Assembly (NCBI GenBank): GCA_947456805.1
Contig: CANGTN010000006.1
Location: forward strand, 1 to 64,000
Direction: 5' to 3'
Length of the DNA: 64,000 nt
Source of the DNA: Chitinophagaceae bacterium
Lineage (GTDB): Bacteria > Bacteroidota > Bacteroidia > Chitinophagales > Chitinophagaceae
Below, in pieces: positions 21,684-46,110 of this stretch. Below the pieces are notes generated by a model. It saw nothing but the letters and a program-made list of their open reading frames with translations, was not told where the DNA came from and made no database searches. The position numbers and the translations under genes are program-made. Within the stretch, counting starts at the first letter, position 1. Every line of letters starts with the position of its first letter.

Positions 21684-21832
21684 CTCAATTTGTTTTACAG
21701 AGGTTCAAGGAGTTGAACTAGTTGGAAGAGTTTAGTGATGTTTAAACTTTTTGTTCAATAAAGTGATACAGTTGAAGGGTGCGACGCAACAGAAGCAAAA
21801 TAGATATTCTACAGTTGATTAAAAATAATATT

Positions 21833-23479
21833 ATGCCAAAAGACAATTCAATAAAATCGGTTTTAATTGTAGGTTCAGGGCCCATCATTATTGGTCAAGC
21901 TTGTGAGTTTGATTACAGTGGTTCACAGGCTGCTAGAAGTTTGCGTGAAGAAGGCATAAAGGTGTATTTAATCAACAGCAATCCTGCTACGATTATGACC
22001 GATCCGATGATGGCAGATAAAGTGTATTTATTGCCATTGACCGTAGAAAGTATTGAGCAAATTTTGCAGGAAAATCAAATAGATGCGGTATTACCAACTA
22101 TGGGCGGACAAACTGCTTTGAACCTTTGCAAAGAAGCTGATGAAATGGGCATTTGGGAGAAATACAATTGCAGAATGATTGGTGTGGATGTGGCTGCAAT
22201 TAACACTGCTGAGGACAGAGATTTGTTTAGACAATTGATGGTGAAAATTGGTATTGAAGTAGCACCAAGCCATGTTGCCAACAGCTTTTTAGAAGGAAAA
22301 GAATTTGCCCAACAAATTGGGTTTCCTTTGGTAATTCGTTCTTCATTTACATTAGGCGGAAGTGGTGGTGGATTTGTACATGATAAAAGCGAGTTGGATG
22401 AAGCTTTGAAACGGGGATTGGAAGCAAGTCCTATACATGAAGTGCTGGTAGAAAAAGCAGTTTTGGGTTGGAAAGAATTTGAACTGGAATTATTGCGTGA
22501 TCAAAATGATAATGTAGTTATTATTTGTACAGTAGAAAATTTAGACCCTATGGGTGTGCATACCGGAGATAGTATTACAGTTGCTCCGGCTATGACACTT
22601 AGTGACACTGCATTTCAGGACATGCGCAATAAAGCAATTTTGATGATGCGCAGCTTAGGAAATTTTGCCGGTGGCTGTAATGTGCAATTTGCATTAAACC
22701 CCGAAACTGAAGAATTGATTGCGGTAGAAATTAATCCAAGGGTTAGCCGTTCTTCAGCATTGGCAAGTAAGGCTACAGGATATCCGATTGCAAAGATCGC
22801 TGCGAAGTTGGCAATTGGTTACAGTTTAGATGAATTGAAAAATCAAATTACACAAACTACTTCTGCTTATTTTGAACCTGCATTGGATTATGTAATTGTA
22901 AAAATTCCTCGTTGGAATTTTGATAAATTTAAAGGAGCGAATGATACTTTGGGCTTGCAAATGAAAAGTGTTGGTGAGGTAATGGCTATTGGCAGAAGCT
23001 TTACTGAAGCTATCCAAAAAGCTTGTCAGAGTCTGGAAAACAACGCTGTGGGGCTTGGATATTATGGCAAAAGCTTGATGAAGACCGAAGAGATTTTAGA
23101 ATACATTAAGGTGCCGAAATGGGATAGAATATTTAGAATTAAAGATGCATTAATGCAAGGTGTTACTGTAAAAACAATTGCGCAGGCAACCGGAATAGAC
23201 AGATGGTTTTTGTACCAGATTCAAAAAATATGCACCATTGAAAAAGAGCTGGGTAAATATTTTTTAGACAGCTTACCAGATGATTTAATGAAAGAAGCAA
23301 AACGCAATGGATTTGGCGATGAGCAAATTGCAAAAATATTAAGTGGCGATTGTACCGAAGATGAAGTATATGAAAAACGCAAAGCAGCAGGTATTACCAG
23401 GGTTTATAAAATGGTAGATACTTGTGCTGCTGAGTTTGAAGCCAAGACACCTTATTTTTATAGTACGTTTGAGGGGTAA
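21833..23479 (+). CDS. carB: Carbamoyl-phosphate synthase large subunit, N-terminal half only
   Basis: 548 residues from the ATG at 21833 (MPKDNSIKSV is the usual CarB start). It covers the first ATP-grasp (carboxyphosphate) domain: VGSGPIIIGQACEFDY, LPTMGGQTALN, SSFTLGGSGGGF and AVEINPRVSRSSALA. The oligomerisation domain follows and the protein ends TPYFYSTFEG. A full CarB has about 1,070 residues and continues here into the second ATP-grasp (carbamate) half and the allosteric domain. The stop falls exactly at that boundary and none of the second half is downstream. Either the enzyme is encoded as two genes with the C-half elsewhere, as in some other lineages, or the gene was cut by rearrangement at the repeat-rich gap that follows. 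Confidence 0.9.
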   Translation: MPKDNSIKSVLIVGSGPIIIGQACEFDYSGSQAARSLREEGIKVYLINSNPATIMTDPMMADKVYLLPLTVESIEQILQENQIDAVLPTMGGQTALNLCKEADEMGIWEKYNCRMIGVDVAAINTAEDRDLFRQLMVKIGIEVAPSHVANSFLEGKEFAQQIGFPLVIRSSFTLGGSGGGFVHDKSELDEALKRGLEASPIHEVLVEKAVLGWKEFELELLRDQNDNVVIICTVENLDPMGVHTGDSITVAPAMTLSDTAFQDMRNKAILMMRSLGNFAGGCNVQFALNPETEELIAVEINPRVSRSSALASKATGYPIAKIAAKLAIGYSLDELKNQITQTTSAYFEPALDYVIVKIPRWNFDKFKGANDTLGLQMKSVGEVMAIGRSFTEAIQKACQSLENNAVGLGYYGKSLMKTEEILEYIKVPKWDRIFRIKDALMQGVTVKTIAQATGIDRWFLYQIQKICTIEKELGKYFLDSLPDDLMKEAKRNGFGDEQIAKILSGDCTEDEVYEKRKAAGITRVYKMVDTCAAEFEAKTPYFYSTFEG

Positions 23480-23671: not shown

Positions 23672-23774
23672 AACGCCAAGCCATGGCGTTCCCCCGTGTT
23701 GCGGGGTCGGGCTTTTCATTCCAAGTCCGTTGGCCGTTGCGGCCATACGGGCTTTCCATTGCAATCCCTAACGC
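23672..23774 (-). repeat. Structured interspersed element, copy 1 (inverse of 27044-27131)
   Basis: Read on the minus strand the element runs GCGTTAGGGATTGCAATGG ... AACGC. It has a terminal GCGTT/AACGC pair, a hairpin GGCCG-CAA-CGGCC and a hairpin CCCCG-n5-CGGGG. About 90% of its bases match copy 2, which lies in the opposite orientation 3.3 kb away. An extra inverted repeat AACGCC/GGCGTT (23672-23677 and 23685-23690) borders one end. The core element is 23686-23774. Confidence 0.85.
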
Positions 23775-26121: not shown

Positions 26122-26151
26122 TTGCAAATTTTATAAACAATACTACTTTTA
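26122..26151 (+). promoter_or_regulatory. Promoter of the arginine operon leader
   Basis: TTG at 26122-26124, 19 bp spacing, then TACTTTTA at 26144-26151; the last base of TAnnTTTG is A rather than G. The leader ORF starts 10 bp downstream. Confidence 0.5.
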
Positions 26152-26160
26152 CGCCTCAAA

Positions 26161-26223
26161 ATGGAAAAGAATCAATTACATAAACCGCATCCTTATTTGC
26201 AACTGCTGCGACGTGGTTGCTGA
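26161..26223 (+). CDS. Putative 20-codon leader peptide of the arginine operon
   Basis: The ATG lies 10 bp after the promoter box. The peptide has 20 residues and ends LLRRGC, followed by TGA and then TAG. The tandem Arg codons CGA-CGT are at 26209-26214. The peptide overlaps the 5' arm of one of two alternative helices described in the next entry. Leader peptides rich in the regulated amino acid are the hallmark of transcription or translation attenuation, and the genes downstream make arginine. I know of no described arginine leader of this form in Bacteroidota; function is inferred from position. Confidence 0.5.
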   Translation: MEKNQLHKPHPYLQLLRRGC

Positions 26224-26272
26224 TAGGACGAGCAGTTGGCAATTGCCCCTATCAGTGAAATTCTCCCGCAAC
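26199..26272 (+). promoter_or_regulatory. Alternative-helix leader RNA, candidate arginine attenuator
   Basis: Helix A pairs CAACTGCT (26200-26207) with AGCAGTTG (26231-26238). Helix B pairs CTGATAGG (26220-26227) with CCTATCAG (26248-26255). Both are perfect over 8 bp. Each lies partly inside the loop of the other, so they are exclusive or form an H-type pseudoknot. A third set, GCAAC (26199-26203), GTTGC (26216-26220) and GCAAC (26268-26272), adds competing pairings. A T-rich run at 26289-26301 follows, and GNAT begins at 26319. A ribosome paused on the Arg codons would cover one arm of helix A. Confidence 0.55.
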
Positions 26273-26318
26273 ATTTTAGCAAAGCCAATTTTTCTTTTTT
26301 TATTTAATTGATCAAACC

Positions 26319-27005
26319 TTGGAAACCAATAATATTATTATTCGTGTAGCAACAAACCTTGATACGCACTACGCTAAACGTATTACCGACGAAATGGAGT
26401 CAAGTGCGAAAGCAAGGGGCACGGGTATCGCTAAAAGAACACCCGAATATGTTGCTTCTAAAATGCTGGAAGACAAAGCAGTGATTGCTGTTACCAATAC
26501 CGGACTATGGGTGGGCTTTTGTTATATAGAAGCCTGGCAACATGGTGCATTTGTTGCAAACAGCGGTTTAATTGTTGCTCCTGAATATAGAAAAAGCGGC
26601 ATCGCCAAATTGATTAAGAAAAAAATATTTGAACTAAGCAGAGAGAAATATCCGAACAGTAAAATATTTGGACTGACAACGGGATTGGCTGTAATGAAAA
26701 TCAATAGTGAACTGGGTTACGAGCCGGTAACCTACAGTGAACTTACCAAGGATGAAGAGTTTTGGGCGGGTTGTAAAAGCTGTGTGAATTATGATATTTT
26801 GATGAGTAAGGAAAGAAAAAACTGTATGTGTACGGCAATGTTATTTGACCCCGCAGACCATTACGAACCGAAAGAAACAAAAGCGTATTTCGAAAAGAAA
26901 AGAAAAGTGTTTGAAAGACTACAGCGATTGAAAGAAAAAAACTTTTTGAAGCGTTTCATTAAAAAAGAAGAGGGTAAAGTTGCTAAAGGAAGGAAATCTT
27001 TGTAA
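26319..27005 (+). CDS. GNAT-family acyltransferase in the arginine operon
   Basis: 228 residues from a TTG start; upstream in-frame alternatives hit a stop at 26277. IIIRVATNLDTHYAKRITDE opens the domain, and the acetyl-CoA loop region is VAPEYRKSGIAKLI, typical of GNAT. A Lys-rich tail follows. It is first in the operon with argG, argC and argD. Bacteroidota use N-succinyl or N-acetyl intermediates for ornithine but often lack a recognisable argA. A role as the N-acylglutamate synthase of this pathway is plausible and unproven. Confidence 0.8.
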   Translation: METNNIIIRVATNLDTHYAKRITDEMESSAKARGTGIAKRTPEYVASKMLEDKAVIAVTNTGLWVGFCYIEAWQHGAFVANSGLIVAPEYRKSGIAKLIKKKIFELSREKYPNSKIFGLTTGLAVMKINSELGYEPVTYSELTKDEEFWAGCKSCVNYDILMSKERKNCMCTAMLFDPADHYEPKETKAYFEKKRKVFERLQRLKEKNFLKRFIKKEEGKVAKGRKSL

Positions 27006-27043: not shown

Positions 27044-27131
27044 GCGTTAGGGATTGCAATGGAAAGCCGGGATGGCTGCATCAGCCAAAGGACTTGGAAT
27101 GAAAAGCCCGACCCCGCACCACGGGGGAACG
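27044..27131 (+). repeat. Structured interspersed element, copy 2
   Basis: Same 88-89-nt element as 23686-23774 but in the opposite orientation. The first hairpin reads GGCTG-CAT-CAGCC where copy 1 has GGCCG-CAA-CGGCC: a C-G pair changed to T-A in both strands. The second hairpin is CCCCG-CACCA-CGGGG. It lies inside the transcribed gap between the GNAT gene and argG. Confidence 0.85.
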
Positions 27132-27177: not shown

Positions 27178-28380
27178 ATGAGTAAAAAAGTTGTCTTAGG
27201 ATTTTCGGGTGGATTGGATACGAGTTTTTGTGCAAAATATTTGTCGGAAGACATGGGTTATGAGGTGCATAGTATTGTGGTAAATACAGGTGGTTTTTCT
27301 GATGAAGAATTAGTACAAATTGAAGCACATGCCTACAAGTTGGGCGTTCAATCGCATACTGCTATTAACGCTGTAAAGCCATACTACGACAGTATTTTGA
27401 AGTATTTGGTTTTTGGAAATGTACTGAAAAATAATACATATCCACTAAGTGTAAGTGCCGAAAGATTGGCGCAGGCTTTGCACATTGCAGCACATGTAAA
27501 AAAGCTGGAAGCAAATGCTGTAGCGCATGGCAGTACGGGTGCAGGAAATGATCAGGTACGATTTGATATGGTGTTTCATATCGAAATTCCGGGAGTAGAA
27601 ATTATAACGCCAATTCGTGATTTAGAATTAAGTAGAGAAGCCGAGATTGAATATTTGAAAGGCAAAAATGTGGATATGAATTTTGAAAAGTCTGCCTACT
27701 CTATCAACAAAGGATTGTGGGGTACAAGTGTTGGCGGCAAAGAAACATTGAGCAGCAAAGGTGCTTTACCGGAATCGGCTTGGCCTACACAAATTTCAAA
27801 GCATGGAGAAGAAGAAGTAACCTTATATTTTGAAAAAGGGGAGTTGAAAAAAGTGAATGGAGTTGCGTTCAATCATCCATCCGAAGCAATACAATATTTA
27901 CAAACGATTGCTGGCGCTTATGCCATAGGAAGGGATATACATATTGGTGATACGATCATTGGAATAAAAGGAAGAGTAGGATTTGAAGCTGCTGCTGCAA
28001 TGGTAATAATTAAAGCACACCATGCATTGGAAAAGCATGTGTTAACCAAATGGCAATTACAATGGAAAGATACATTATCGCAGTTTTATGGCAACTGGCT
28101 GCATGAAGGACAAATATTAGATCCTGTGATGAGAGATATTGAAGCATACTTGCAACAAAGCCAACAAAATGTAACCGGCGAAGTGTTTGTACAATTACAA
28201 CCCTATCGTTTTCAGATTTTAGGAATTGCAAGTGCGCATGATTTAATGAGTGCCAAATTTGGAAAATATGGTGAAATGAATACAGGTTTTACCGGAGCCG
28301 ATGTAAGAGGCTTTAGTAAAATTTTTGGTAATCAAACTTCCATTTATCATCAGGTAAATAAAACAACAAATGAAGATTAA
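27178..28380 (+). CDS. argG: Argininosuccinate synthase
   Basis: 400 residues. LGFSGGLDTSFCAKYL is the ATP-pyrophosphatase P-loop. AHGSTGAGNDQVRFD is the family signature with citrulline and aspartate contacts, and ITPIRDLELSREAEIEY follows. It condenses citrulline and aspartate. Its last codons overlap argC by 11 nt (ATGAAGATTAA), which couples the two genes. Confidence 0.97.
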   Translation: MSKKVVLGFSGGLDTSFCAKYLSEDMGYEVHSIVVNTGGFSDEELVQIEAHAYKLGVQSHTAINAVKPYYDSILKYLVFGNVLKNNTYPLSVSAERLAQALHIAAHVKKLEANAVAHGSTGAGNDQVRFDMVFHIEIPGVEIITPIRDLELSREAEIEYLKGKNVDMNFEKSAYSINKGLWGTSVGGKETLSSKGALPESAWPTQISKHGEEEVTLYFEKGELKKVNGVAFNHPSEAIQYLQTIAGAYAIGRDIHIGDTIIGIKGRVGFEAAAAMVIIKAHHALEKHVLTKWQLQWKDTLSQFYGNWLHEGQILDPVMRDIEAYLQQSQQNVTGEVFVQLQPYRFQILGIASAHDLMSAKFGKYGEMNTGFTGADVRGFSKIFGNQTSIYHQVNKTTNED

Positions 28381-29391: not shown

Positions 29392-29745
29392 ATGCAAAAT
29401 TATAAGGACTTAAAAGTATGGGAGAAATCACATTCGTTTACTTTACAAGTTTATGCTGCTACGAAAGATTTTCCTAAAGAAGAAATGTATAGTTTAACCA
29501 ATCAAATTCGGAGATCTGCATCATCCATAGCGGCGAATATTGCAGAGGGTTGTGGTAAAAAAAGTAATCTTGAATTTGCACATTACTTGAATATAGCTTT
29601 GGGGTCGGCTAATGAATCTGAATATTTTTTATTATTATCAAAAGATTTAAAATATTTATCTGAAGAAAATTATGATTCATTGTTTTTATTGATTAATGAG
29701 ATAAAATCAATGCTGATAAAACTTATCAATAAAGTAAGATCTTGA
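29392..29745 (+). CDS. Four-helix-bundle protein (23S rRNA intervening-sequence protein family)
   Basis: 117 residues, all helical: LKVWEKSHSFTLQVYAATKDF, YSLTNQIRRSASSIAANIAEG, FAHYLNIALGSANESEYFL and a final helix. This is the S23/TIGR02436 family, a fold shared with the Avd accessory protein of diversity-generating retroelements. The product is usually annotated only by its fold. It interrupts the arg operon between argC and argD and is bracketed by inverted heptamer arrays. It may be a mobile or selfish cassette rather than a metabolic gene. Confidence 0.85.
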   Translation: MQNYKDLKVWEKSHSFTLQVYAATKDFPKEEMYSLTNQIRRSASSIAANIAEGCGKKSNLEFAHYLNIALGSANESEYFLLLSKDLKYLSEENYDSLFLLINEIKSMLIKLINKVRS

Positions 29746-30991: not shown

Positions 30992-31384
30992 TTATAGATC
31001 CAATAACAACTGCTGAACCTGATTTTTTATATAATCTCTTACTTCATTGAAAGCCTCGGGTTCCATGTGTTTGGGATCAGGAATACGCCAATCTACAAAT
31101 TGTTTTGCCGGCATCCATGGGCAAGCATCACCACAACCCATCGTTACTACTACATCAAATGGAGCAAAGGCCTTTACCTCTTCTAAACTTTTACTGTCAT
31201 GTGTATTAAGGTCGTAGTTAAGTTCTTTCATTGCTGCAATAGCTTTTGGATTTACAATGCCACTTGGGTTGCTTCCTGCACTGTAAGCCTCAATATTTTC
31301 ACCGCCTAACATTGTTGCAAATGCTTGACTCATTTGACTTCTATTACTATTTTCAACACAAACGAAAAGCAATTTCTTTTTCAT
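30992..31384 (-). CDS. arsC: Arsenate reductase, thioredoxin-coupled type
   Basis: 130 residues with the low-molecular-weight tyrosine phosphatase fold. CVENSNR (Cys 9, C-x5-R loop) is followed by MGCGDACPW with Cys 84 and Cys 88, the relay cysteines of thioredoxin-linked ArsC. It reduces arsenate to arsenite. It is the last gene of the ars operon, 12 bp after acr3. Confidence 0.95.
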   Translation of the reverse strand: MKKKLLFVCVENSNRSQMSQAFATMLGGENIEAYSAGSNPSGIVNPKAIAAMKELNYDLNTHDSKSLEEVKAFAPFDVVVTMGCGDACPWMPAKQFVDWRIPDPKHMEPEAFNEVRDYIKNQVQQLLLDL

Positions 31385-31396
31385 GATTTAAAAAAG

Positions 31397-32467
31397 TTAA
31401 GATTGATTCACAAAATATTTTTTCCTGAACCAAAAAGCAAGGTTAACTAATGCAATTAATGCAGGAACTTCTACCAATGGTCCAATAACACCCGCAAAAG
31501 CTTCACCGCTATTAATTCCAAATACACCAATTGCCACAGCAATCGCCAATTCAAAATTGTTGCCTGTTGCAGTAAATGCAATGGAAGTAGCACGTGAATA
31601 ATCTGCGCCAAAATATTTCCCTAAGAAAAAACTGATAACGAACATAATTGTAAAATAAAAAACTAAAGGAATGGCAATCAGCACCACATCTTTTGGAATT
31701 TGAACAATCAATTCTCCTTTCAAACTGAACATTACCAATATTGTAAATAACAATGCGATTAAAGTAATTGGGGAAATGAAAGGAACATACTTTGTTTGAA
31801 ACCATTCCTTGCTTTTCCATTTTATCAAAGCATATCTGCTAATAATGCCTGCTGCAAAAGGGATACCTAAATAGATGCCCACTGTTTTTGCAATTGATGC
31901 AATTGTAATATTTACAGCCAACCCTTTTAAGCCAAAATGCGGAGGCAATACTGTTATAAAAACGTAAGCATATACGCTGAAAAAGAATACTTGAAAAATA
32001 CTGTTCAATGCAACTAATCCTGCTGCATATTCTCTATTGCCTTCTGCCAATTCGTTCCAAACAACTACCATTGCTATACAACGAGCAAGGCCAATTAAAA
32101 TCAAGCCTATCATGTATTCGGGATAGGATTGCAAAAAAATAATGGCCAATAAAAACATTAATAACGGACCAACAACCCAATTTAAAAAAAGTGATACCCC
32201 CAACACTTTTGTGTTTTGAAATACCTTTCCCATTTGCTCATACTTAACCTTTGCTAATGGCGGATACATCATTAAGATTAATCCTATTGCTAAAGGAATA
32301 TTGGTTGTTCCAGAAGAAAATGAATTGATGAATGAGGCTGATTCAGGATAAAAATAACCAATACTTACGCCTACAGCCATTGCTAAAAAAATCCATATCG
32401 TTAAATACCGATCTAAGAAACTTAATTTCTTTCTATTGGTTGTTGGTGTGCAGTTATTGGTAGACAT
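31397..32467 (-). CDS. Arsenite efflux permease of the ACR3 family
   Basis: 356 residues with about ten membrane helices. The [14 protein letters not shown] segment contains the conserved Cys. I use the ATG at 32467 (MSTNNCTP). The longer frame adds about 20 residues and would overlap arsM. It exports arsenite made by ArsC. Operon arsR-arsM-acr3-arsC, all on the minus strand. Confidence 0.94.
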
Positions 32468-32486
32468 ACTTGAGTTATATTTTAAT

Positions 32487-33338
32487 TTAGCAACATCCAC
32501 CACCAGGTGTGCAAGCTGCATTATTCTCAACTAAAGGTTTTTCGGCAAAAACAGTGATACTAAATATTCCTGTATCGCCTTGTTTAAAATGATTGAGTTC
32601 TTCTGTACTCAAATAATTAATTAAAATATCGTCAGGAATTACAATTGGTTTTTCTTTCTGTATTACAATATTGATAAATCCGTTGGCATGAATTAATTCC
32701 ATATATACTTCTTTCTGTATTGCACCACTAATGCATCCGGCATACATTTCTGCATCTTTTCGTAATTCATCCGGAAGGTTACCAACCAATACAACATCAG
32801 AAATACTAAAGTGGCCACCAGGTTTTAATACCCGAAAAATTTCTTTCATTACCCCATTTTTATTGGGCACAAGATTCAATACACAATTACTTACAACTAC
32901 GTCTGCAATATTTGAAGTTAATGGCATTTTTTCTATATCTCCTTGTCTGAATTCTACATTATTTAATCCCCTTACTTCTGCATTGTATCTTGCTTTCTCA
33001 ATCATTGCCGGTGTGAAATCTATTCCAATTACTTTACCTGCATTACCGGTTTCAGCCCTTGCTATAAATGCATCATTGCCGGCCCCACTACCCAAATCCA
33101 CCACAACATCTCCTTGTTTTATTTTAGCAAATTGTGTTGGTAAGCCACAGCCCAAACCCAAGTCTGCATCGGGGTTATAGCCTTGAAGCGAAGTATAATC
33201 ATCACTCATAATGTTATATACTTCTGTGCTACATCCCCCTGCACCACAACATGATGATTGATTCATTGCTTTATCTTGTAATGCAATTTCACTGTATTTA
33301 TCTTGTACTATTTTTTTTAATTCAATATCTGTAGGCAT
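32487..33338 (-). CDS. arsM: Arsenite S-adenosylmethionine methyltransferase
   Basis: 283 residues. The SAM motif is [15 protein letters not shown]. Cys in SNCVLNLVP and YAGCISGAI match the arsenite-binding cysteines of ArsM. Cys-rich ends are CCGAGGC near the N-terminus and CTPGGGCC at the C-terminus. It methylates As(III) to volatile or less toxic species. Placement directly after arsR is usual. Confidence 0.93.
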
Positions 33339-33373
33339 CGTTTTGTTTTAAAAATTAGAAAATAATAAAATTA

Positions 33374-33709
33374 TTAGCAACATTTTTGTTCACGCTTTTC
33401 ATTTAAGTTACAAAATAAAAAATTGAGATTTACTTGTAATTTTTCAACGGCTTTCCAATTAATACAATAGCAACTTTTTGTGCCTTGTATGTTACCTTTA
33501 ATAAGACCTGCATCTTTTAATGCCTTTAAATGTTGGCTTACAGTTGCCTGAGCCAAAGGCAAAACTTCTACAATTTCACCACAAACACATTCATTACGAT
33601 TGGCTAATATTTTTAAAATTGCAATTCGGGCAGGATGTGAAATTGCTTTTGCAAAAGCAGCTAAATCTTGTTCTTTTTTACTAAATGATTCTGTTTTGTG
33701 TATTGCCAT
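33374..33709 (-). CDS. arsR: ArsR-family arsenic-responsive repressor
   Basis: 111 residues with a winged helix-turn-helix (LAQATVSQHLKALKDAGLI). The metalloid-binding cysteines are likely ECVCGE (Cys 41 and 43), with further CYC and CC near the end. It represses the operon until arsenite binds. Operator candidate: the palindrome at 33750-33787. Confidence 0.93.
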   Translation of the reverse strand: MAIHKTESFSKKEQDLAAFAKAISHPARIAILKILANRNECVCGEIVEVLPLAQATVSQHLKALKDAGLIKGNIQGTKSCYCINWKAVEKLQVNLNFLFCNLNEKREQKCC

Positions 33710-45844: not shown

Positions 45845-46110
45845 AATCAAGTTTTGATTTTTATTTTCCCTACTCATATGGCTTTTCAGAATACGCCCCG
45901 TTTGAATGGTTTCTGGTCTCCATTTATTAATAATTAATAATAGCAATTTTAATAAATATTATTTAAAAAAAGAAAAAAATTTGCTATGTGTGTATAAAGT
46001 ATTTTTAAACTAGATTTTACAGATGAAGTGTGTACGTAAATTAAAAAATGTTGTTTCGGTTTGTAAAATTCTTAAGATTATAAGTCTAAAAGAATTCAGG
46101 AGTTTGTTTT

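What the first reader, a model, noticed from the sequence alone, without database searches (positions are those of the whole stretch)
26122..26318. Candidate arginine attenuator: RR-containing leader peptide with two exclusive helices
A promoter-like box is followed after 10 bp by a 20-codon ORF with tandem Arg codons. It overlaps helix A (26200-26207/26231-26238) and is followed by helix B (26220-26227/26248-26255), both perfect 8-bp helices. They exclude each other or form a pseudoknot. A third set of GCAAC/GTTGC pairings competes. The operon below makes arginine. A Trp leader with similar logic is described in Bacteroidota; an arginine version of this form is not known to me. The link between stalling and switching is inference.
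Basis: partly seen in the sequence, partly recalled or inferred. Interest (0 to 1): 0.8.

Follow-up and report, generated by a model that had tools for sequence, protein, structure and literature searches.

The report
Arginine leader peptide without a terminator
In front of arginine-making genes, many Bacteroidota bacteria carry a tiny gene that ends in arginine codons next to a conserved RNA hairpin, which looks like a sensor that lets the cell make arginine only when it runs short, and it seems to lack the usual stop signal that such sensors use.

Summary
The short ORF (26161-26223, MEKNQLHKPHPYLQLLRRGC*) and helix B (26220-26227/26248-26255) are real and conserved; helix A is not. In the family (Chitinophagaceae, judged from named relatives), 191 of 199 regions upstream of this acetyltransferase gene hold a leader ORF with RR in its last nine residues, against 9-18 in shuffles. 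argG follows in 103 of 103 testable loci. The first Arg of RR is CGA in 164 of 169 distinct leaders; CGA is 7-8% of Arg codons in nearby ORFs where measured. RR lies at fixed distances from the stop. In 104 of 197 family leaders the stop codon sits in the 5' arm of a near-invariant hairpin. Outside the family 35 of 60 regions have RR, against 2-8 in shuffles. Strong terminators: 3 of 181 arg leaders, against 26 of 27 his leaders of the same family. After the hairpin the RNA is C-rich and G-poor (98 of 99; baseline 59 of 104), as Rho sites are. Best reading: an arginyl-tRNA-sensing leader that acts without an intrinsic terminator, working like Salmonella speF orf34. The sensor is well supported; the output is inferred. 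No experiment has been done.

The parts
26144..26151 (+). Promoter -7-like box TACTTTTA
   Evidence: sequence; exact TAnnTTTG 60-240 nt upstream of the leader stop in 83/104 H, 13/58 N and 6/32 V loci against 11, 4 and 3 in shuffles; looser TAnnTTT[GA] in 103/104, 56/58 and 8/32, without a shuffle control. The Bacteroidota consensus TAnnTTTG is recalled.
26161..26223 (+). Leader peptide ORF MEKNQLHKPHPYLQLLRRGC*, stop UGA at 26221-26223
   Evidence: comparable leaders
26209..26214 (+). Tandem Arg codons CGA CGT, 12 nt before the stop
   Evidence: Codon statistics; fixed spacing
26220..26255 (+). P1 hairpin (helix B): outer stem 26220-26227/26248-26255, inner stem 26232-26234/26244-26246; the leader stop codon lies in the 5' arm
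   Evidence: Alignment A1 (67 sequences); genome pattern search; fold
26236..26240 (+). P1 loop UUGGC, able to pair with 26284-26288 GCCAA (possible counterpart of the loop-loop pairing in the H3 subset)
   Evidence: Sequence; similar complementarity seen by eye in L002, L031, L032; covariation tested only in H3
26284..26288 (+). Downstream partner GCCAA
   Evidence: as above; inferred in the window
26258..26318 (+). C-rich relative to G (13 C, 4 G of 61) stretch between hairpin and GNAT; possible Rho loading region
   Evidence: group statistics
26319..27005 (+). GNAT-type acetyltransferase, first gene of the operon, TTG start
   Evidence: weak, below curated cut-offs; PA4794-type GNAT, E 1.5e-07
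27178..28380 (+). argG, argininosuccinate synthase
   Evidence: above Pfam cut-offs; below the NCBIfam cut-offs, narrowly for TIGR00032
28370..29347 (+). argC
   Evidence: TIGR01850 above cut-off
29392..29745 (+). 23S rRNA-intervening-sequence (four-helix) protein between argC and argD
   Evidence: PF05635
29826..30968 (+). argD-like acetylornithine aminotransferase
   Evidence: PF00202; best TIGR00707, below its cut-off

Best explanation
This is the leader of a GNAT-argG-argC-argD operon and works as an arginyl-tRNA sensor. SUPPORTED BY COMPARISON: a leader peptide is translated and its tandem Arg codons, in the family nearly always beginning with CGA, lie at a fixed distance upstream of a stop codon that, in the window's class, is buried in hairpin P1. 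INFERRED: when arginine is short, the ribosome halts on CGA-CGN with its front edge at or near the start of P1, so P1 can form and the operon is expressed. When arginine is plentiful, ribosomes reach the UGA, open the 5' arm of P1, and the C-rich, G-poor RNA downstream is exposed to Rho-dependent termination or decay. No intrinsic terminator and no clear masking of the gene start takes part. The logic resembles the 'downstream of stop' hairpin of Salmonella speF orf34, without common descent.
For: RR in the last nine leader residues: family 191/199 vs 9-18 in shuffles; outside the family 35/60 vs 2-8. argG downstream 103/103. First Arg of RR is CGA in 45/45 N, 31/32 V and 88/92 H or other leaders, vs 6.7% (N loci) and 7.9% (H loci) of Arg codons in nearby long ORFs; V background not measured. 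In class N, R-5 and R-4 are CGA in 45/45 each, while R-2 uses all six codons. Share of changes at third codon positions in ungapped pairs: 0.57 H, 0.43 N, 0.38 V. RR-to-stop distance: 12 or 18 nt (H, 88/89), 15 (N, 45/45), 6 (V, 31/32). P1: all outer pairs kept, the inner stem covaries. The P1 pattern lies 87-127 nt before GNAT in 55 of 61 hits in 195 genomes, and beside GNAT in one more. Terminator-like dG<=-8: 0/99 H, 3/50 N, 0/32 V vs 26/27 his leaders; none in the window. C>G after P1: 98/99 H vs 59/104 baseline and 4/27 his. Own genome: tRNA-Arg ACG, CCG and CCT found; no TCG, nor TCT, so the set is incomplete.
Against: No expression, toeprint or Rho data. In V leaders (RR directly before the stop) a ribosome on RR would also cover the stop-proximal helix, so the P1 logic does not transfer unchanged. 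In the 12-nt spacing of the window, a footprint of 12 nt beyond the A-site codon would already cover up to four nucleotides of P1; only the 15- and 18-nt spacings leave it clear. CGA is 10.4% of Arg codons in the window and not its rarest. C>G is weaker in N (41/50) than in H, and it is no proof of a rut site. P1 is more invariant than a simple helix needs, which hints at an extra role. Class N also keeps P, R and I at -3 to -1, which pure codon sensing does not explain. Third-position excess is weak in V. In Salmonella speF frequent Arg codons worked as well as rare ones (PMC6386406, passages), so codon rarity is not required there. Start-region accessibility rises by more than 0.1 in 23 of 75 H loci when the leader stop is covered and falls by that much in none, which would fit a translational output.
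Confidence: 0.5

Rival explanations
1. Classical transcription attenuator: alternative antiterminator and intrinsic terminator helices decide between stop and read-through.
For: Leader peptide with cognate codons just before the stop and cognate operon. V leaders show overlapping alternatives GATAC/GTATC vs CATAGT/ACTATG by eye. The family does use this mechanism for histidine. A few arg leaders do carry terminator-like sites (3/50 N at dG<=-8; in a wider scan from -260, 6 of 99 loci).
Against: 178 of 181 distinct arg leaders lack a strong site under a test that finds 26 of 27 his terminators. Under the looser threshold H 6/99 vs 6/198 shuffles, N 6/50 vs 4/100, V 3/32 vs 7/64, so at most a slight excess in H and N. 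None in the window.
Confidence: 0.08
2. Arginine-sensing arrest peptide: the nascent chain itself binds or senses arginine and stalls termination at the stop codon, repressing the operon when arginine is high.
For: Residues next to the stop are kept with free codon choice in class N: P-3 42/45 with four codons, R-2 45/45 with six, I-1 41/45 with three. Class N is defined by the ending RR[PQS]R[ILP], so the residue counts are partly built in; but only 3 of 197 family leaders fell in no class. 18 of 42 leaders picked outside the family end R-[IVA]-stop. Upstream residues look similar across families (V leaders vs L209, L217, L234, by eye).
Against: CGA is held at codon level in RR, which a peptide sensor does not need. 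C-terminal ends differ strongly between classes (RRGC, RRPRI, VRR, PRA).
Confidence: 0.15
3. Translational attenuator: P1 and the second hairpin, in one of two states, hide or expose the GNAT start.
For: Weak TTG/GTG start codons of GNAT in H and N (H 47 TTG, 18 GTG, 10 ATG; N 53 GTG, 5 TTG). P2 and loop-loop pairing towards the gene in H3. Mean accessibility of the start region rises when the leader stop is covered: H 0.48 to 0.54 (gain above 0.1 in 23 of 75, such a loss in 0), N 0.54 to 0.58 (14 gain, 4 lose of 58).
Against: The effect is small and absent in V (0.50 vs 0.50; 1 gain, 2 lose of 32). Removing upstream sequence tends to raise accessibility anyway; no control for that was run. 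P1 ends about 60 nt before the start in the window.
Confidence: 0.2
4. Metabolite-binding RNA: P1 with its conserved internal loop and loop-loop contact is an aptamer (for arginine or another ligand) and the ORF is incidental.
For: Near-invariant P1 sequence (20 invariant columns of 79, part of them fixed by the selection pattern) and loop-loop covariation in 42 H3 sequences.
Against: Classes N and V lack P1 but keep the Arg leader at the same place. No Rfam match in the leader of the window at gathering threshold, and only four hits below gathering scores in 7 loci at E<=1. Codon-level selection on RR.
Confidence: 0.05

Closest known systems
Salmonella speF orf34 leader (PMC6386406; abstract, passages and first part of the Discussion read)
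   Same: Short leader ORF with two consecutive Arg codons; hairpin downstream of the stop whose formation depends on whether the ribosome waits at Arg codons or at the stop; arginine lowers expression; Rho and RNA decay as outputs.
   Different: Different phylum, gene and pathway (ornithine decarboxylase against arginine synthesis). No peptide homology detected: five leaders gave no Pfam match at E<=0.2 (one chance-level DevR hit at 0.25). There RR is at codons 12-13 of 34; here RR begins 2-6 codons before the stop and, in class H, the stop is inside the hairpin. No speF-like RBS sequestration seen.
his operon attenuators of the same family (found here)
   Same: Leader peptide with cognate codons upstream of a biosynthetic operon in the same family.
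   Different: his leaders have a strong terminator (26/27, median dG -14.9); nearly all arg leaders do not.
Classical trp/his/leu attenuation of enterobacteria (recalled)
   Same: Regulatory codons near the end of a short leader ORF.
   Different: No terminator/antiterminator pair found here; arginine as the sensed amino acid.
TnaC arrest peptide (title and start of abstract of PMC8429421 seen in a search listing) and fungal arginine attenuator peptide (recalled)
   Same: Critical residues near the stop codon (recalled); the fungal peptide senses arginine (recalled).
   Different: Codon-level constraint here; no ligand stalling shown.
Leader-peptide candidates in Bacteroidota transcriptome maps (PMC9723704 and PMC7366714, passages only)
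   Same: F. [quoted passage not shown] B. thetaiotaomicron: sORFs reminiscent of leader peptides.
   Different: No arginine leader is named in the passages read; supplementary tables could not be opened.

Membership tests
Ribosome-mediated transcription attenuator (classical) | Leader ORF with regulatory codons for the operon's product | tested here: met
Ribosome-mediated transcription attenuator (classical) | Intrinsic terminator between leader stop and first gene | tested here: not met
   with his leaders as positive control; 3 of 50 N leaders are exceptions
Ribosome-mediated transcription attenuator (classical) | Conserved mutually exclusive helices | tested here: not met
   For the window's class: helix A in 2 of 92. 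V leaders show candidate alternatives by eye only
Ribosome-mediated transcription attenuator (classical) | Expression responds to charging of the cognate tRNA | not testable with these tools
   needs reporters
speF orf34-type leader | Tandem Arg codons in the leader ORF | tested here: met
speF orf34-type leader | Hairpin at or just after the leader stop codon | tested here: met
   Class H: (z 18.6, but H is selected for the hairpin); N z 5.2, V z 3.3, outside the family z 1.9 (relatedness inflates z)
speF orf34-type leader | Rho-dependent termination | tested here: inconclusive
   C>G bias only
speF orf34-type leader | Homology to ORF34/DUF2618 upstream of ornithine decarboxylase | tested here: not met
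   No such Pfam match for 5 leaders; the genes downstream are GNAT-argG
Known structured RNA families (Rfam 15) | Match at or above a family's gathering score | tested here: not met
   Window (its one match lies elsewhere, at 45862-45928); 7 loci with E<=1, all below gathering scores
Ligand-sensing arrest peptide | Peptide residues conserved independently of codons next to the stall site | tested here: inconclusive
   Seen at -3 to -1 in class N, partly by class definition, while RR is held as CGA; other classes differ
Ligand-sensing arrest peptide | Ligand-dependent stall in vitro | not testable with these tools
   needs toeprinting

The most novel reading that the evidence does not exclude
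A class-wide arginine leader of Bacteroidia that senses arginine twice, through CGA codons and through peptide residues at the stop codon, and passes the signal to a sequence-invariant stop-codon hairpin with a loop-loop contact, with neither an intrinsic terminator nor masking of the ribosome site; if the peptide part is real it would be, to my knowledge, the first bacterial arginine-sensing arrest peptide.
Probability: 0.14. Interest if true: 0.85.

Novelty: new variant of a known kind. Interest (0 to 1): 0.62.

Why it matters
Little is known of how Bacteroidota sense amino acids. In one family, the his operon uses a textbook attenuator while the arg operon, on present evidence, uses a leader peptide with no terminator. 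That makes a paired system to ask what else a stalled ribosome can do to its transcript. The fixed spacing, the CGA bias and the stop codon inside an almost invariant hairpin each give a sharp, testable prediction.

Tried and rejected
Helix A as half of a switch: rejected. GCAAC/GTTGC as a third competing pairing: the 26268 partner is changed in L002; not tested further. Intrinsic terminator: searched from 260 nt before to 400 nt into the gene in 73 H and 26 N loci; 6 of 99 have a site upstream and 7 of 99 inside the gene at dG<=-8, the latter all near +198. Start-codon masking by folding with and without a ribosome on the stop: small effect. Pairing of the RR codons with downstream RNA as the reason for CGA conservation: complementarity is no longer than shuffled (3.43 vs 3.87 H, 3.40 vs 3.62 N, 3.53 vs 3.71 V). 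RNAalifold on whole V and N leaders gave energy 0 and no structure, probably because of gaps and variable sequence. A second small ORF starting at the GTG at the end of P1, and pairing of P1's loop with the GNAT start, were checked by eye in several loci only and did not look conserved.

Literature: searches of the open PMC library (lists capped at 20 of 250 papers, 20 of 21 and 15 of 19) listed no paper whose title or abstract start named an arginine leader in Bacteroidota. Subscription papers and supplementary tables were out of reach, so absence from print is not shown.

Full report
WHAT IS THERE. The window (G000:C6) holds an operon of GNAT acetyltransferase (26319-27005), argG, argC, a 23S-IVP four-helix protein and an argD-like aminotransferase. 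Between 26144 and 26318 lie a promoter-like box, a 20-codon ORF ending LQLLRRGC*, and the 8-bp helix B that contains the ORF's stop codon. Two perfect 8-bp helices in such a stretch arise in 5% of shuffles and one in 29%, so conservation must decide.

LOCI COMPARED. Some genomes occur twice across collections, so counts use distinct sequences where stated. Not every GNAT locus in the searched genomes was fetched.

THE LEADER PEPTIDE. Of 200 family loci one was set aside for runs of N. Of the other 199, 191 have an ORF 20-200 nt upstream with RR in its last nine residues; dinucleotide shuffles give 9, 9, 14, 14 and 18. Of the 8 exceptions three end in PRPRPGF and one in FRPGC. Outside the family 35 of 60 have it against 2-8 in shuffles. 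Ends there such as VPFFPRR*, FCIRR*, SRRRPYMPRA*, RRCYFHRI* and RRMRPPFGV* differ in almost everything but arginine; the choice of ORF is automatic and some picks may be wrong. In the family 197 leaders were picked: 104 H (hairpin; RRGC*, RRGF*, RRRPVF*, RRSPGC* and similar), 58 N (RRPRI* and close variants), 32 V (mostly VRR*) and 3 in no class. argG follows GNAT in 103 of 103 loci with enough sequence, argC in 85 of the 103 within the sequence held.

CODONS. In distinct family leaders the first Arg of RR is CGA in 164 of 169 (45/45 N, 31/32 V, 88/92 H or other). CGA is the rarest Arg codon in long ORFs around the H and N loci, at 7.9% and 6.7%; V loci were too short to measure. In the window it is 10.4% and not the rarest. 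In class N the two Arg of RR are CGA in 45 of 45 each, while the Arg two codons before the stop uses all six codons and the Pro before it all four. So RR is held at codon level, as tRNA sensing predicts, while residues -3 to -1 look held at peptide level. Two cautions: N is defined by its ending, so the residue counts are partly built in (codon choice is not), and outside the family Arg codons are mixed (CGA 22%, AGG 25% of those in the last nine). The codon constraint is not explained by pairing with downstream RNA. Changes concentrate at third codon positions, 0.57, 0.43 and 0.38 in H, N and V for ungapped pairs; I take this as evidence of translation, weak in V. The own genome shows tRNA-Arg ACG, CCG and CCT among the tRNAs found, no TCG and no TCT, so CGA is presumably read by the inosine tRNA (established knowledge), on an incomplete list.

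THE HAIRPIN. In 67 distinct H sequences (from loci L001-L110) all cells of the 8-bp outer stem pair; seven pairs never vary and one covaries; the four inner pairs are 87% paired, with double changes in three. Never-varying pairs say nothing by themselves, and H was chosen by a pattern that fixes most of the outer stem, so that part is partly circular; the inner stem was not selected, and only 3 family leaders fell outside all classes. A stricter pattern occurs in 59 of 195 family genomes, at 61 sites: 55 lie 87-127 nt before a displayed GNAT match, one more beside GNAT (L132), three are elsewhere (G134:C44 and a two-strand palindrome in G029), one is at a contig end (L129) and one could not be placed. 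In a subset of 42 (H3), P1's loop is complementary to the loop of a second small hairpin some 45-50 nt on. Over both helices 86% of cells pair; the loop-loop helix has double changes in four of six pairs, one pair with six standard types but 13 of 41 unpaired; slid controls fall to 24-49%. The window has a similar loop complement, UUGGC/GCCAA, untested. Stop-proximal complementarity exists also in N and V above shuffles (z 5.2 and 3.3, inflated by relatedness), and weakly outside the family (z 1.9).

TERMINATOR TEST. From leader stop to gene start, strong hairpin-plus-U sites occur in 0/99 H, 3/50 N and 0/32 V leaders, against 26 of 27 his leaders from the same family with the same test (his loci; 27 of 30 gave a leader by automatic choice). 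At a looser threshold the arg leaders show H 6/99 vs 6/198 shuffles, N 6/50 vs 4/100 and V 3/32 vs 7/64, at most a slight excess in H and N. The window shows none.

WHAT MAY REPLACE IT. After P1 the RNA is C-rich and G-poor: C>G in 98 of 99 H, against 59 of 104 ordinary 5' regions (starts taken as first ATG) and 4 of 27 his leaders; over the whole stretch N 41/50, V 30/32, outside 30/32. That fits Rho loading but does not prove it. Start-site masking has slight support in H and N, none in V.

MECHANISM. RR begins 12 or 18 nt (H), 15 nt (N) or 6 nt (V) before the stop, nearly without exception. If the ribosome covers about 12 nt beyond the codon it reads (stated in PMC4833913, two of three parts read), one halted on the first CGA stays clear of P1 in the 18-nt spacing, reaches the stop in N, and may cover up to four nucleotides of P1 in the 12-nt spacing; one at the UGA must open P1. 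Salmonella speF orf34 is proposed to work with the same two positions: waiting at tandem Arg codons permits a downstream-of-stop hairpin, pausing at the stop prevents it, and Rho and RNase G provide the output (PMC6386406). I therefore favour starvation, P1 formed, operon on; plenty, P1 open, operon off through Rho or decay. Supported by comparison: leader, codons, spacing, hairpin, lack of terminator. Inferred: direction, role of P1, output. Class V geometry does not fit this without change.

NOVELTY. The listings and passages I saw contain no arginine leader in Bacteroidota; leader-peptide attenuation in the phylum has been suggested in general (PMC9723704, PMC7366714, passages). I file this as a new variant of ribosome-sensing leaders, not as a member of the classical attenuators (terminator tested and not met), nor as a homologue of speF orf34.

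Noticed in passing
L289-L318 (upstream of hisG in the family): Textbook his attenuators: leader peptides such as MKINIHIHHHHFISNG and a strong terminator of the GGGCUUACC/GGUAAGCCC type before hisG in 26 of 27 leaders picked from 30 loci.
   Followed up: partly
G000 and G010; G110 and G181: The window's genome and same-genus G010 have no HisG match, and same-genus G110 and G181 have no GNAT match: amino-acid pathways seem to come and go in this genus.
   Followed up: no
26319; GNAT starts in relatives: GNAT starts are mostly TTG or GTG in classes H (65 of 75) and N (58 of 58) but ATG in V (27 of 32); many leader ORFs also start TTG/GTG.
   Followed up: partly
27047-27067 (+) and 23751-23771 (-): Identical 21-base sequence at two places outside the listed long ORFs in opposite orientation, none expected by chance: probably part of an interspersed repeat, one copy between GNAT and argG.
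   Followed up: partly
21779-23479: ORF of 566 aa matches only the first half (about 1-543 of 1058) of carbamoyl-phosphate synthase large subunit: a split or interrupted carB.
   Followed up: no
45862-45928 (-): DUF805 RNA (RF03081), 74.3 bits, above the gathering score.
   Followed up: no
30992-33709 (-): From the translations, judged by eye, this looks like an arsenic cluster: ArsC-like phosphatase, ACR3-like transporter, ArsM-like methyltransferase, ArsR-like regulator, next to the arg operon.
   Followed up: no
29392-29745: A 23S rRNA-intervening-sequence (four-helix) protein gene sits inside the arg operon.
   Followed up: no
Class N and V leaders, between leader stop and GNAT: A recurring CGTGTAT(C/T) or CGTGTC motif, seen by eye, possibly complementary to the stop-codon region UGAUAC; not tested.
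   Followed up: no
GNAT genes of L013, L015, L045, L058, L064, L069, L108, about +198: All seven terminator-like sites found inside GNAT lie at the same place, near base 198 of the gene; probably a by-product of conserved coding sequence.
   Followed up: no
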